DNA of 64,000 nt from assembly GCA_020532085.1 (NCBI GenBank), contig JAJBAV010000004.1, forward strand, positions 1 through 64,000. Reading direction: 5' to 3'. The stretch comes from Candidatus Cloacimonadota bacterium. GTDB taxonomy: Bacteria; Cloacimonadota; Cloacimonadia; Cloacimonadales; Cloacimonadaceae. The notes under the pieces were generated by a model. The model was not told the DNA's origin, made no database searches, and saw only the letters and a list, made by a program, of their open reading frames with translations. Positions 18,427-26,756 of this stretch are shown here, piece after piece (positions within the stretch are counted from its first letter, which is position 1; each line of letters starts with the position of its first letter). Both the position numbers and the translations under genes were made by a program.

Positions 18427-19347
18427 ATGCCCAAAGTACTGATCGCCACGGAAAAACCCTTCGCCGCCGAAGCCGTGCAAAAGATCAAGGCCGAGTTGGA
18501 CGCCGCCGGTTATCCCCACGTTTGGCTGGAAAACTACACCGATCCCCAAGACCTCCACACTGCCGCGACTGCTGCCGAAGCCCTCATCATTCGCAGCGAC
18601 AAGGTGGACGAAGCCGTTTTCGCGGCCGCCCCTCAGCTCAAGATCGTGGTGCGCGCCGGCGCCGGATACGACAATATCGACCTCGCCGCCGCCACCGCCC
18701 ACAACGTTGTGGCCATGAACACCCCCGGCCAGAATTCCAACGCCGTGGCCGAACTGGCCCTGGCCATGATGATCTTTATGGCGCGGGGCAAATTTAACGG
18801 CAAAAGCGGAAGTGAACTGGCCGGTAAAAAGCTGGTGCTCTACGGTTTCGGCTTCGTCGCCCGCTACCTGGCCAAGATGGCCAAAGGCGTCGGCATGGAA
18901 GTTTTCGCCTACGATCCCTACCTCAGCTCCGAGATCATGACCAAGGAAGGCGTGACCGCCCTGCACAAGGTGGAGGACATCTTCAGCACCGGCGACTTCA
19001 TCTCCCTGCACATTCCCGCCACCGCCGAGACCAAGAAATCCATCAACTGGGACCTGCTTTCCCTGATGAAGGACCACTGCATCCTGGTGAACACCGCGCG
19101 CAAAGAAGTGATCGACGAGGATGCCCTGCTGAAGGCCTTTGAAGAGAAAAAGAAATTCCGCTACGTGAGCGACGTCGAGCCCGAATGCTCCGCCCAGCTG
19201 GCCGAACTTTATGCCGACCGCAGTTACTGGACCCCCAAGAAAATGGGCGCCCAGACCGGAGAGGCCAACGTCAACGCCGGCGTGGCCGCCGCCAAACAGA
19301 TCATCGCCTTCTTTGAAAAAGGTGACAAGACCTACAAGGTGAATTAA
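18427..19347 (+). CDS. serA: D-3-phosphoglycerate dehydrogenase, short lysine type
   Basis: The 306-residue NAD-dependent enzyme makes 3-phosphohydroxypyruvate, the first step of serine synthesis. It shows VVRAGAGYDNIDLAAATAH, MNTPGQNSNAVAELAL, a Rossmann loop YGFGFVA, the catalytic Arg in NTARKEVID and a Glu in DVEPE. The usual catalytic His (TPHxG) is replaced by Lys in TPKKMGAQT, as in the short, ACT-free PGDHs of Bacteroidota. In the nucleotide loop the third Gly is Ala. AAGGAG precedes the ATG. It follows the C25 peptidase gene by 71 bases and is closed by a strong terminator. No phosphoserine aminotransferase gene is adjacent. Confidence 0.92.
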   Translation: MPKVLIATEKPFAAEAVQKIKAELDAAGYPHVWLENYTDPQDLHTAATAAEALIIRSDKVDEAVFAAAPQLKIVVRAGAGYDNIDLAAATAHNVVAMNTPGQNSNAVAELALAMMIFMARGKFNGKSGSELAGKKLVLYGFGFVARYLAKMAKGVGMEVFAYDPYLSSEIMTKEGVTALHKVEDIFSTGDFISLHIPATAETKKSINWDLLSLMKDHCILVNTARKEVIDEDALLKAFEEKKKFRYVSDVEPECSAQLAELYADRSYWTPKKMGAQTGEANVNAGVAAAKQIIAFFEKGDKTYKVN

Positions 19348-19383
19348 TTACGCCCCCGTACCCCGGTTCGTGGCGCAAACAAT

Positions 19384-19411
19384 AACCCCCGGTTTTTGGC
19401 CGGGGGTTTTT
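19384..19411 (+). terminator. Rho-independent terminator of serA
   Basis: AACCCCCGG (19384-19392) pairs with CCGGGGGTT (19400-19408), with T to 19411. The same 36-base sequence, including the hairpin, is repeated after the next gene. Confidence 0.92.
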
Positions 19412-19473
19412 GCTGGGGATCAGCTGCTTCCGGGTGAATCCAGCCCGTCTGGAATTGACCATTTGTACACACC

Positions 19474-19505
19474 AACCGGCAAATAGTACGGACTATTTGT
19501 CGGTT
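19474..19505 (+). promoter_or_regulatory. Imperfect 14-bp inverted repeat upstream of the ATPase
   Basis: AACCGGCAAATAGT (19474-19487) and ACTATTTGTCGGTT (19492-19505) match with one mismatch around a 4-base centre. It lies just before the TTGACG box, so it may be an operator or an RNA hairpin if transcription starts further up. Confidence 0.45.
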
Positions 19506-19522
19506 ATTACCGTAAAAAAGTC

Positions 19523-19551
19523 TTGACGGCGGGAGCCGGATTGCTTTGATG
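19523..19551 (+). promoter_or_regulatory. Probable promoter of the ATPase gene
   Basis: TTGACG (19523-19528) is followed after 16 bases by TTTGAT and G. The start codon is at 19566, so the leader would be very short. Confidence 0.35.
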
Positions 19552-19565
19552 GTTTTGAGGTCAAG

Positions 19566-20801
19566 ATGAACTACATTGAACGTGAACTCGAACGACAGAT
19601 TGTATCCAGGTTGGACAGCGGGAAAGCCCTGTTTATCCTGGGCGCCAGACAGGTCGGGAAAACAACACTACTGAAGAGGCTTATGGAACTTGTGGGAATC
19701 CCCAAATCGCTCTATTATGATTTGGAGATCCCCGCGAATCTGGAATTGTTTTCCGGAACTCATGAGAGAGTTGTGAACCGGTTGAGATTCGACCGCGGAG
19801 CACAAAGCGGTAAAACCTACGTGTTCATTGACGAGATCCAGTATCTGAGTGATTTTTCCAGGACGGTCAAGATCCTGGTGGATCACTACGGAGATGAGTT
19901 CAAGCTGGTGATGACCGGCTCTTCCTCTCTGCTCATCAAACACCAGTTCTCAGAATCCCTGGCCGGCCGCAAAGAGGTTATGGTATTGCGTTCACTAAGT
20001 TTTGCCGAATTCTGCCGTTTCAAGGGCGAAGAGAGGATCGCGGGCCAACTGGTCTCGGATTTAAACGAGGGAAACCATCCTTTGTTAACCCTGACTGCCA
20101 GGATGGAGGGGTTGCTGGAAGAATACGCCATTTTCGGAGGTTTTCCCGAAATTGTGCTCCTGAATGGACAGAAGGCCAAGATAGAGCTTCTCAATGACAT
20201 AGTGACCTCCTATATTCTCAAAGACATAAAGCATATCTTGCGCGTCGAAAAACTGCAGGAACTGAATCGTCTGATCAAGACCCTGGCCCTCAACATCGGC
20301 AAAGAGATCAACATCAGCGAACTGAGCAGAAACATTGGCCTGCACCGGGAAACTGTTCAGAAATATCTGGTTACTCTGGAGGAGTCATTCATCGTTAGCA
20401 CCATCCGGCCGTTTTATTCCAGCCTGGATAAAGAACTGCGCAAAATGCCCAAGGTCTATCTGCAGGACACCGGTATCAGAAATCTGCTAACGAATGATTT
20501 CAGTCCTCTAGACGAGCGCCGTGACAGGGGCGAATTGGTGGAGAACGTGTTTTTCCAAAGTCTGCTGCGCAAACAGGAACCCACCACCCGCATCGGTTAC
20601 TGGAAGACCAAACAGGGTTCCGAAGTGGATTTCGTGTTCACCGAGGGTGACAAGATCTTTGCCTATGAGGTCAAGTACGGATCAGACAGGTCAAATCATT
20701 TCTCCACTTTTCTCAAAGCCTACCCCCGGGCAAGATGTATCACTGTGCGGTATAAATATAAATATAAACAGGGCGAGCTGCCTTTGTGGCATCAGATTTA
20801 G
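19566..20801 (+). CDS. AAA ATPase with DUF4143 domain
   Basis: The 411-residue protein has an N-terminal AAA_14 NTPase core with Walker A GARQVGKTTLL (about 25-35), Walker B VFIDEIQYL and the sensor-like MTGSSSLLI. A helical region and a C-terminal DUF4143 domain follow, with a nuclease-fold-like end (GYWKTKQGSEVDFVF...AYEVKYG) that resembles PD-(D/E)xK elements. Proteins of this kind are common, sporadically distributed and of uncertain role; a defence or selfish function has been suggested for relatives, but is not shown. GAGG precedes the ATG. Base composition is more A+T rich than in serA, and exact 36-bp repeats bracket the gene. Both facts suggest recent acquisition. Confidence 0.88.
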   Translation: MNYIERELERQIVSRLDSGKALFILGARQVGKTTLLKRLMELVGIPKSLYYDLEIPANLELFSGTHERVVNRLRFDRGAQSGKTYVFIDEIQYLSDFSRTVKILVDHYGDEFKLVMTGSSSLLIKHQFSESLAGRKEVMVLRSLSFAEFCRFKGEERIAGQLVSDLNEGNHPLLTLTARMEGLLEEYAIFGGFPEIVLLNGQKAKIELLNDIVTSYILKDIKHILRVEKLQELNRLIKTLALNIGKEINISELSRNIGLHRETVQKYLVTLEESFIVSTIRPFYSSLDKELRKMPKVYLQDTGIRNLLTNDFSPLDERRDRGELVENVFFQSLLRKQEPTTRIGYWKTKQGSEVDFVFTEGDKIFAYEVKYGSDRSNHFSTFLKAYPRARCITVRYKYKYKQGELPLWHQI

Positions 20802-20810
20802 CCAAACAAT

Positions 20811-20838
20811 AACCCCCGGTTTTTGGCCGGGGGTTTTT
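20811..20838. terminator. Terminator between the ATPase gene and rpmA
   Basis: The hairpin is identical to that after serA (AACCCCCGG / CCGGGGGTT). It has T on the plus side and a T-rich TTATTGTTT on the minus side, so it can serve both the ATPase gene and the convergent rplU-rpmA transcript. Confidence 0.85.
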
Positions 20839-20858: not shown

Positions 20859-21128
20859 TTAGGCTTCGGCGCTGATGGGGACCACGGAGACAAACTTGCG
20901 GTTGCTGGCTCCGCGGGTCTCAAACTTCACATGGCCTTCGATGAGGCTGAACAGGGTGAAATCCCTGCCCATGCCAACGTTGGCGCCGGGATGGAACTTG
21001 GTGCCTTTCTGGCGCACGATGATGTTTCCGGCCACCACGTATTCGCTGCCGTACTTCTTCACGCCGCGGTATTTGGGATTGCTGTCCCGTCCGTTGCGGC
21101 TGCTTCCGACTCCTTTCTTATGTGCCAT
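20859..21128 (-). CDS. rpmA: 50S ribosomal protein L27
   Basis: The 89-residue product is a clear L27 of normal length: [19 protein letters not shown] at the start, the [11 protein letters not shown] signature in the middle. It begins directly with MAHKK, without the cleaved N-terminal extension seen in Firmicutes. L27 sits by the peptidyl-transferase centre. The gene is 11 bases downstream of rplU, the usual L21-L27 pair, but no obg follows. It ends 20 bases from the shared bidirectional terminator. Confidence 0.97.
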
Positions 21129-21139
21129 TTCTCATCTCC

Positions 21140-21454
21140 TCAGATCCGGATCCCGGTGACTTTAATTTCGGTGTATTTCTCACGGTAACCTTTTTTAACC
21201 CGGTAACCTTTCCTGCGCTTGGCATGGTAGATCACCTTCTTTTTGCCTTTACCGTGGTCGATAACTTCGGCAAGTACTGCTGCGCCTTCTACTACGGGCT
21301 GGCCGACCATGATCTCGTCCTCATTGCGGACAAGCAACACCCGGTCAAATTCCAGGCTTTGGCCCGGCTCCGCCGTATTCAGCAGGGGAACGCGCAGGAT
21401 GGCGTTGGCTTCAGCCCTGAACTGAAATCCTTTGATATCAACGATGGCGTACAT
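21140..21454 (-). CDS. rplU: 50S ribosomal protein L21
   Basis: The 104-residue product is a full-length L21 ([15 protein letters not shown]..., the [23 protein letters not shown] region that binds 23S rRNA). AAGGAG precedes the ATG. It is the first gene of the rplU-rpmA operon. Its promoter is at 21483-21512, so the mRNA leader is only about 20-30 bases and no autoregulatory leader fold is expected. A large hairpin at 21561-21605 lies upstream of that promoter. Confidence 0.97.
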
Positions 21455-21482
21455 CTTGACTCCTTGTTTTTGTATGGAAGGT

Positions 21483-25703: not shown

Positions 25704-26756
25704 ATGAAAAAATCCATAATGACCTGCGCGATTCTGCTGTTGGCGCTGAGCGCCTCAGCCAATCCCGTCACCCCCAGAAGCCTGGCCCGGCTTTGGTTTG
25801 ATTCCGGCGACCTCTATCTCCAGTTCGCCCAAGATTACATGGGCCCAGGCTATCTGGACCGCATTCCGGAACTTACCTTTGTCAATTCAGCCGGGACCTG
25901 GCAATTCCCCGACACTTTCGTTCCACCCACCTCCCTGCCCTGCACGGTGAACATCTCCGAGGCCATTCCCGGTTTCAGCTTTGATCCGCAAAACGATCAG
26001 CTGATTCTGCAGGACAGCCTTTCGTGGGCTCCACACTGGCAGGAATCGATCAGCTGGGGGCCGGGCGACACTGTGGCCCTGCATCCCCTGCTGGCCGGCC
26101 AATCCGCAGTGCAGGTGATGGTGGGTACCTACGAAGGCGAGGTTGCCGGCTGGGCCAAGGACATAGGCACCGAGGGCGGGTTTAACCCTGTTCACGGCTA
26201 CACCCTCAGCGTCCACACGCAAAACCAGTACGGAGTGCCGGTGTCTGGAGTTCCTGTCTATGTAAGCTTTATCAACTATATTTCCACCTATTACACTCCA
26301 TTTTCCACCGATGCCGATGGAAACTGGCAATCCAACTTTTACTCCGTGCCCACCTGGGTGCGGGTCCTGGACCCGCTCACCCAGGACCCGGTGCTGGATA
26401 CCAGGTTCTACCCCGAACCGGAGGAAACCGTTGCGCTCTCCGCCGTGATCACCAGCGTGGACGCCAACGATCCGGTCCAGCCCTCAGCCAGCCAGGTTCT
26501 GCGGATCAGCCCCTCCGTGCTCAACTCCGCCACGGGCAACACCGTTTCCCTCAAATACGGCCAGGATGATACCTTCGCCGGAGCTGCCGAACTCCGCCTC
26601 TTCGATCTGCGCGGCCGCGTTTTGGCCACATCTGGGATGCCGGCCGGCGGTGAGACTCAGTGGCGTTTGCCGGATCTGCCCAGCGGGATCTATTTCATCG
26701 CTCTGGAGCAGGGCTCGCGCCAGTTGGGACGGGGCCGCATCACCGTCATTAGATGA
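25704..26756 (+). CDS. Secreted protein with sorting-like C-terminus (paralogue B)
   Basis: The start is the ATG at 25704, preceded by GAGGT, 8 bases after the previous stop. The 350-residue product has a signal peptide (MKKSIMTCAILLLALSASA) and the same plan as its upstream neighbour: PRSLARLWFDSGDLYLQF at the N-terminus, SISWGPGDTVALHPLLAGQSAVQV in the middle (compare EIVSWGPQTDTSVDIHPL), and a C-terminal LFDLRGRVLATS...LPSGIYFIAL...RITVIR. The conserved SWGP and HPL...AGQSxVQ blocks are the strongest common features. Same operon. Function unknown. Confidence 0.82.
   Translation: MKKSIMTCAILLLALSASANPVTPRSLARLWFDSGDLYLQFAQDYMGPGYLDRIPELTFVNSAGTWQFPDTFVPPTSLPCTVNISEAIPGFSFDPQNDQLILQDSLSWAPHWQESISWGPGDTVALHPLLAGQSAVQVMVGTYEGEVAGWAKDIGTEGGFNPVHGYTLSVHTQNQYGVPVSGVPVYVSFINYISTYYTPFSTDADGNWQSNFYSVPTWVRVLDPLTQDPVLDTRFYPEPEETVALSAVITSVDANDPVQPSASQVLRISPSVLNSATGNTVSLKYGQDDTFAGAAELRLFDLRGRVLATSGMPAGGETQWRLPDLPSGIYFIALEQGSRQLGRGRITVIR

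What the first reader, a model, noticed from the sequence alone, without database searches (positions are those of the whole stretch)
19376..20838. ATPase gene bracketed by exact 36-bp terminator repeats
The serA terminator region is repeated without a mismatch after the ATPase gene, so gene plus repeat looks like a cassette inserted at a terminator, with lower G+C. AAA/DUF4143 genes are patchily distributed. Transfer by homologous recombination at repeated terminators would be a simple route to explain that.
Basis: partly seen in the sequence, partly recalled or inferred. Interest (0 to 1): 0.6.

Follow-up and report, generated by a model that had tools for sequence, protein, structure and literature searches.

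The report
Old one-gene insertion with private operator
A candidate anti-phage gene sits between two identical 36-base terminators; comparison with relatives shows it is an old insertion that can be lost cleanly, and that genes of its family across bacteria and archaea often carry a private 33-base repeat array in front and sometimes sit between duplicated pieces of the target DNA.

Summary
In detail: CAAACAATAACCCCCGGTTTTTGGCCGGGGGTTTTT occurs at 19376-19411 and 20803-20838 and nowhere else in the genome. The gene between is an intact AAA_14/wHTH/PD-(D/E)XK (DUF4143) protein, PADLOC candidate PDC-S01. The predicted one-terminator site exists: in G019, the sister species on rpoB, serA and rpmA are joined by one terminator.

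Recent transfer is not supported. G024 (82% identical) and G021 (67%) carry the orthologue at the same site with diverged terminators, and G020 keeps a remnant. So the gene is old here and was lost in G019 and G020. The 36-bp identity is best read as later homogenisation.

Two wider patterns emerged. (1) Genes of this family are often preceded by tandem arrays of 31-34 bp period: 60/197 against 2/309 other ORFs, 23/57 in a fresh sample. Here it is two 33-bp units next to the -35 box, which suggests autoregulation. (2) Some are flanked by direct repeats of host DNA: 23/197 against 3/309. The clearest is a helicase gene with its first 83 bp duplicated around the ATPase. This resembles restriction-modification genes that insert with long target duplication. 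The array is not reported in the papers I could search. No wet-lab function is known.

The parts
18427..19347 (+). serA-like D-2-hydroxyacid dehydrogenase (306 aa), left neighbour
   Evidence: Pfam 2-Hacid_dh and 2-Hacid_dh_C; nearest NCBIfam model is PGDH but below its cut-off
19376..19411 (.). terminator copy T1 (exact 36-bp repeat, hairpin plus T run)
19412..19456 (.). spacer between T1 and the operator; alignable with G024
19457..19489 (+). operator unit 1 (33 bp): GACCATTTGTACACACCAACCGGCAAATAGTAC
   Evidence: coordinates; tandem/palindrome scan; conserved in G024
19490..19522 (+). operator unit 2 (33 bp): GGACTATTTGTCGGTTATTACCGTAAAAAAGTC; three tandem copies in G021, two in the G020 remnant; a single match in this genome
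19523..19550 (+). proposed promoter TTGACG-16 bp-TTTGAT (G024: TTGACA-16-TAAACT), directly abutting operator unit 2
   Evidence: read from sequence; not picked up by the consensus scan, so inferred
19566..20801 (+). ATPase gene, 411 aa: AAA_14 (Walker A GARQVGKTT, Walker B VFIDE), winged helix-turn-helix, DUF4143 with PD-(D/E)XK-like motif; PADLOC PDC-S01
20803..20838 (.). terminator copy T2 (exact 36-bp repeat), starts 1 bp after the ATPase stop codon
20859..21128 (-). rpmA (ribosomal protein L27), right neighbour
   Evidence: Pfam Ribosomal_L27
21140..21454 (-). rplU (ribosomal protein L21)
   Evidence: Pfam Ribosomal_L21p

Best explanation
19457-20801 is a self-contained one-gene unit: a tandem 33-bp palindromic operator, a promoter, and a DUF4143 ATPase-nuclease gene of the PDC-S01 type. 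It inserted into the serA/rpmA convergent intergenic region before the split of G000, G019, G024, G021 and G020, most likely duplicating the terminator found there, and has been inherited vertically since. In the lineage of this genome the two terminators were made identical again (T1 copied onto T2) by short-tract conversion or template switching between the hairpins. In the sister species G019 recombination between the two terminators removed the unit and left one terminator; in G020 an internal deletion removed most of it. The operator is proposed to be bound by the protein's own winged helix, so that the gene regulates itself. Shown: sequence, synteny, empty sites, remnant, phylogeny, the arrays and flanking repeats in the wider family. 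Inferred: target duplication at this particular site, direction of conversion, autoregulation, defence function.
For: Same-site orthologues in G024 and G021 with different terminators, remnant in G020, one-terminator site in G019, G023, G016, G017, G027. rpoB tree ((G000,G019),G024),(G021,G020) with strong support, so presence in the common ancestor needs two losses. ATPase tree: the three same-site copies are a 100/100 clade. The G019 terminator has T1's left flank and T2's right flank and shares the GGTTTTTG loop with both copies here, while G024's T1 and T2 have other loops. Operator: upstream 31-34-bp arrays in 60/197 DUF4143 genes against 2/309 other ORFs (Fisher 4e-25), 23/57 in a sample fetched after the pattern was noticed. 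Upstream similarity tracks protein similarity at unrelated loci while downstream does so only weakly (Spearman 0.27 against 0.05; Mantel 0/500 for upstream). Flanking direct repeats score >=27 in 23/197 against 3/309 (p 1e-7), fresh sample 5/57 (p 0.003). Clear target duplications: L222, where a UvrD/RecB-like helicase gene (identified by eye) has its first 83 bp duplicated and the full ORF resumes at the ATPase stop codon; L206; L150. Model of 411 aa at pLDDT 94 matches STAND, RuvB and Cdc6/Orc1-origin structures in the PDB.
Against: Target duplication at this site is only indirectly supported: in G021 the two terminators do not resemble each other, and in G024 they match over 25 bp only, which shared terminator design could explain. 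Several genes around the site are closer to G024 than to G019, so local recombination could confuse the history. The right-edge-at-stop pattern is 12/197 against 0/309 overall but 1/57 in the fresh sample (p 0.29). Several flanking repeats (L108, L185, L186) look like dispersed repeats rather than target duplications. No binding or expression data. The operator here has only two units, and its direct-repeat score alone is not significant (p 0.13); its palindrome is (p 0.016).
Confidence: 0.62

Rival explanations
1. Recent transfer: a circle or fragment carrying operator, ATPase and one terminator integrated into the serA terminator of this lineage by homologous recombination, giving two identical terminators. 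G019 is then the original empty state.
For: Exact 36-bp repeat, one-copy site in the sister species, exact junctions; flanking direct repeats recur in the family.
Against: Orthologues at the same site in G024 and G021 and a remnant in G020; three-copy clade; the spacer between T1 and the operator is homologous with G024 at the same place; synonymous divergence at background level. Needs loss followed by regain at the same base.
Confidence: 0.15
2. Plain vertical gene with two independently maintained strong terminators; similarity reflects selection for a strong hairpin plus chance, and there was never a cassette or target duplication.
For: G021 terminators are unlike each other; G024 copies share mainly the G+C-rich stem.
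Against: In this genome the identity covers the loop and the 8-10 bp A-rich leader before the stem, which are less constrained, and no other terminator in the genome resembles it; G019 fuses T1 left with T2 right.
Confidence: 0.18
3. Assembly artefact: a 36-bp repeat created or collapsed in a metagenome assembly.
For: The genome is in 98 contigs and the relatives are draft assemblies.
Against: 36 bp is shorter than usual sequencing reads; G024 has the same gene order with two terminators, and the flanks of both copies are unique and consistent with relatives.
Confidence: 0.03

Closest known systems
PDC-S01 (PADLOC phage defence candidate; AAA ATPase fused to a PD-(D/E)XK domain; COG1373/DUF4143)
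   Same: Best PADLOC match over residues 1-394 (E 3.5e-95); single gene; same domain order; said to be the fourth most common defence across prokaryotes with many transfers between domains (PMC12988326).
   Different: The papers read do not describe the tandem operator or the flanking duplications; antiviral activity is untested there and here.
Insertion with long target duplication of restriction-modification genes (Nobusato et al. 2000, as described in PMC1643837 and PMC3031569)
   Same: A nuclease-type defence-like gene with its own promoter flanked by long, variable direct repeats of host DNA; one-copy sites in relatives; no transposase.
   Different: One gene rather than a modification-restriction pair; at this locus the duplicate is short (36 bp), is a terminator, and the insertion is old.
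Orc1/Cdc6 initiators with origin repeats, and iteron-binding Rep proteins
   Same: AAA+ plus winged helix (PDB 2qby among the structural matches), with inverted or tandem sites next to the protein's own gene (recalled).
   Different: No sign of a replication origin; an added nuclease-like domain; the likeness to iterons is recalled, not tested.
PF01637 (ATPase_2) ATPases
   Same: Another ATPase family whose upstream regions also show tandem repeats.
   Different: Period 15-16 bp, not 31-34, and only one of 26 has a flanking repeat at the same threshold.

Membership tests
DUF4143 / AAA_14 ATPases | Match to PF13635 and PF13173 above the gathering score | tested here: met
   135 bits (cut-off 28.1) and 103 bits (cut-off 27)
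DUF4143 / AAA_14 ATPases | Walker A/B and PD-(D/E)XK-like residues kept | tested here: met
   G26, G31, K32, T33, D89, E90 and E353, D355, E368, K370 invariant or nearly so in 86 sequences
PDC-S01 (PADLOC) | Profile match over the whole protein | tested here: met
   E 3.5e-95, residues 1-394
PDC-S01 (PADLOC) | Antiviral activity | not testable with these tools
   Not validated in PMC12988326 either
PDC-S01 (PADLOC) | Location among other defence genes | tested here: inconclusive
   Here it lies alone between serA and rpmA; the rest of the window was not searched for defence genes
Insertion with long target duplication | Unit flanked by direct repeats | tested here: met
   36-bp exact repeat; family-wide 23/197 vs 3/309
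Insertion with long target duplication | Relative with one copy at the unoccupied site | tested here: met
   G019, overlap of exactly 36 bp
Insertion with long target duplication | Insertion is the derived state in the carrier | tested here: inconclusive
   Derived relative to G023, G016, G017, G027, but older than the G000/G019 split; in that pair loss in G019 is more likely
Insertion with long target duplication | Duplicated sequence is demonstrably target DNA | tested here: inconclusive
   At this site a terminator that relatives also have singly; clear in L222, L206 and L150
Autoregulated gene with tandem operator | Repeated sites adjacent to the gene's own promoter, tracking the protein | tested here: met
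Autoregulated gene with tandem operator | The protein binds the sites and changes expression | not testable with these tools
   needs a binding and a reporter assay

The most novel reading that the evidence does not exclude
DUF4143 ATPase-nucleases are one-gene mobile elements: the protein binds its own 31-34-bp array as the left end, and its nuclease makes widely staggered nicks so that the unit (array to stop codon) inserts with target duplications of tens to about 180 bp, without any transposase or recombinase.
Probability: 0.13. Interest if true: 0.92.

Novelty: new variant of a known kind. Interest (0 to 1): 0.62.

Why it matters
PDC-S01/DUF4143 ATPases are said to be the fourth most common defence in prokaryotes, yet how they are controlled and how they spread is unknown. 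A sequence-specific array in front of these genes gives an immediate, testable handle: a candidate DNA ligand for each protein, and a way to find its regulation or trigger. Flanking duplications, some with edges at the stop codon, offer a route by which single defence-like genes move without a transposase, as proposed for restriction-modification genes. For the finding itself, the comparison shows how an identical terminator pair can be a mark of old insertion, conversion and clean loss rather than of recent arrival.

Tried and rejected
(1) The same 36-mer beside other genes: none. (3) Structure from six sequences: unusable, pLDDT 42; replaced by 86 sequences, pLDDT 94. (4) PDB by sequence: nothing. 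(5) A first regular-expression scan for the 33-bp motif used a wrong spacer length and found nothing; repeated correctly. (6) 'Every DUF4143 gene has the array': rejected, many genes lack it and the rate varies by subfamily. (7) The array always abuts TTGAC: 12 of 60 arrays have TTGA[CT] within -8..+12 bp of their end, against 15% expected at random positions, so that holds by eye in the genus but not as a family-wide statistic. (8) Unoccupied sites for L222 and L216 in relatives: relatives lacked comparable left flanks, no verdict. (9) Literature: one paper with DUF4143, seven with COG1373, three with PDC-S01 in the held library; none found on upstream arrays. Furuta et al. 2010 is not held.

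Full report
Observation. The 36-bp repeat is exact, at 19376-19411 and 20803-20838, and no third copy of its 25-bp core exists in the genome at up to 3 mismatches. Each copy folds as a terminator hairpin. The gene between, 19566-20801, encodes 411 aa with AAA_14 and DUF4143, and is the only DUF4143 gene in this genome. PADLOC files it as PDC-S01. The organism is probably a member of Cloacimonadota: the loci of G051 and G047, in the same phylum, have the same upstream sequence and match as named Cloacimonadota contigs.

Same site in relatives. G019 has serA facing rpmA with one terminator; BLASTN breaks exactly at 19411 and 20803, and the two alignments overlap by 36 bp in G019. However G024 and G021 carry the orthologous ATPase (82% and 67% identity) at the same place with diverged terminators. 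G020 has lost the gene but keeps two copies of the upstream element and the ATPase C-terminal tail. G023, G016, G017 and G027 have serA-terminator-rpmA with no trace. The rpoB tree is ((G000,G019),G024),(G021,G020), then G023/G018 and G027/G017. The three same-site ATPases are a 100/100 clade among 25 relatives from the phylum. The simplest history is one insertion before the five-species split and two losses, G019 cleanly and G020 with a scar. The ATPase is low in G+C in all three carriers (0.487, 0.500, 0.445), so low G+C is a lasting property rather than a sign of recent arrival.

Why are the two terminators identical? The divergence between G000 and G024 is too large for an untouched duplicate to be expected to stay identical in its loop and leader. 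The leader CGCAAA..ATAACC is shared by T1 and by the G019 terminator, which points to T1 as the original and T2 as the copy. Short-tract conversion, or template switching between hairpins, is the likely cause; this step is inferred. Whether T2 began as a target duplication at the insertion is open: G024's two copies still match over 25 bp at 92% with the right copy 8 bp after the stop codon, but G021's do not match.

The operator. Two 33-bp units, 19457-19489 and 19490-19522, abut the proposed -35 box. They contain the palindrome AACCGGCAAATAGTACGGACTATTTGTCGGTT. G021 has three tandem copies. Relatives of the ATPase at unrelated loci have related elements in front although everything else around them differs: for the G051 copy, upstream score 38.5 and downstream 8.5 at 55% protein identity. 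In the wider family the sequence of the unit changes but the period hardly does. Among 98 non-redundant homologues, 31 of 33 clear tandem repeats had period 32-34; the control hits with period 33 included an upstream region shared with an ATPase and another ATPase gene. Over 197 DUF4143 genes, 60 have arrays of period 31-34 against 2 of 309 other ORFs (p 4e-25). In 57 genes fetched after the pattern was noticed, 23 have it. Examples span Bacteroidota, Patescibacteria, Flavobacterium and a Methanosarcinales archaeon. PF01637 ATPases, used as a comparison, have none with this period but repeats of 15-16 bp. The protein model (pLDDT 94) resembles STAND proteins, RuvB and Cdc6/Orc1 on origin DNA, and residues 218-289 match Csa3/CARF-HTH profiles weakly. 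Autoregulation by the winged helix is the most economical reading; binding is not shown.

Flanking duplications. Aligning 450 bp before the ATG with 250 bp after the stop codon gave a repeat scoring 27 or more in 23 of 197 DUF4143 genes against 3 of 309 other ORFs (p 1e-7), and 5 of 57 in the fresh sample (p 0.003). In 12 of 197 against 0 of 309 the right copy starts within -5..+15 bp of the stop codon; the fresh sample alone gives 1 of 57, not significant. The clearest is L222: a promoter-to-stop unit sits after an 83-bp copy of the 5' end of a UvrD/RecB-like helicase gene, and the complete helicase ORF starts at the ATPase stop codon. In L206 the last 78 bp of the upstream gene are repeated; in L150 the last 50 bp. 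Some other cases look like dispersed repeats and should not be counted as proof. The pattern resembles insertion with long target duplication described for restriction-modification genes (PMC1643837, PMC3031569).

Verdict. Observation confirmed. Transfer by recombination at repeated terminators is not supported as a recent event here, but the cassette idea has merit at the family level. The association of the arrays with DUF4143 genes is strong and, as far as the held literature shows, unreported. Function, binding and mobility remain untested.

Noticed in passing
window 21053-21471 (rplU-rpmA): 419 bp are identical between this genome and G024 although the surrounding DNA is only about 80-90% identical; a second exact run of 365 bp lies at 25824-26188. 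Suggests recent homologous recombination between species.
   Followed up: partly
G025 contig C174 30994-39684 (L115); G026: In G025 about 8.7 kb separate serA and rpmA, and in G026 they are on different contigs: the serA/rpmA interval is variable in this genus.
   Followed up: no
L240-L269 (PF01637 ATPases): Upstream regions of PF01637 ATPase genes show tandem repeats of 15-16 bp, about half the DUF4143 period, for example around CATAATGTTTGACAAA.
   Followed up: partly
L222 (G069 C556): The DUF4143 gene inserted at a helicase gene lies just after an ORF that looks by eye like a tyrosine recombinase of the integron-integrase type.
   Followed up: no
L068 (G022 C77): A DUF4143 gene with about 3.5 nearly perfect 33-bp copies directly before TTGACA, and a second DUF4143 gene close by with a different array.
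   Followed up: no
L199: A divergent gene that looks by eye like a MarR/GbsR-type regulator shares the array region with a Flavobacterium DUF4143 gene; the array might control both.
   Followed up: no
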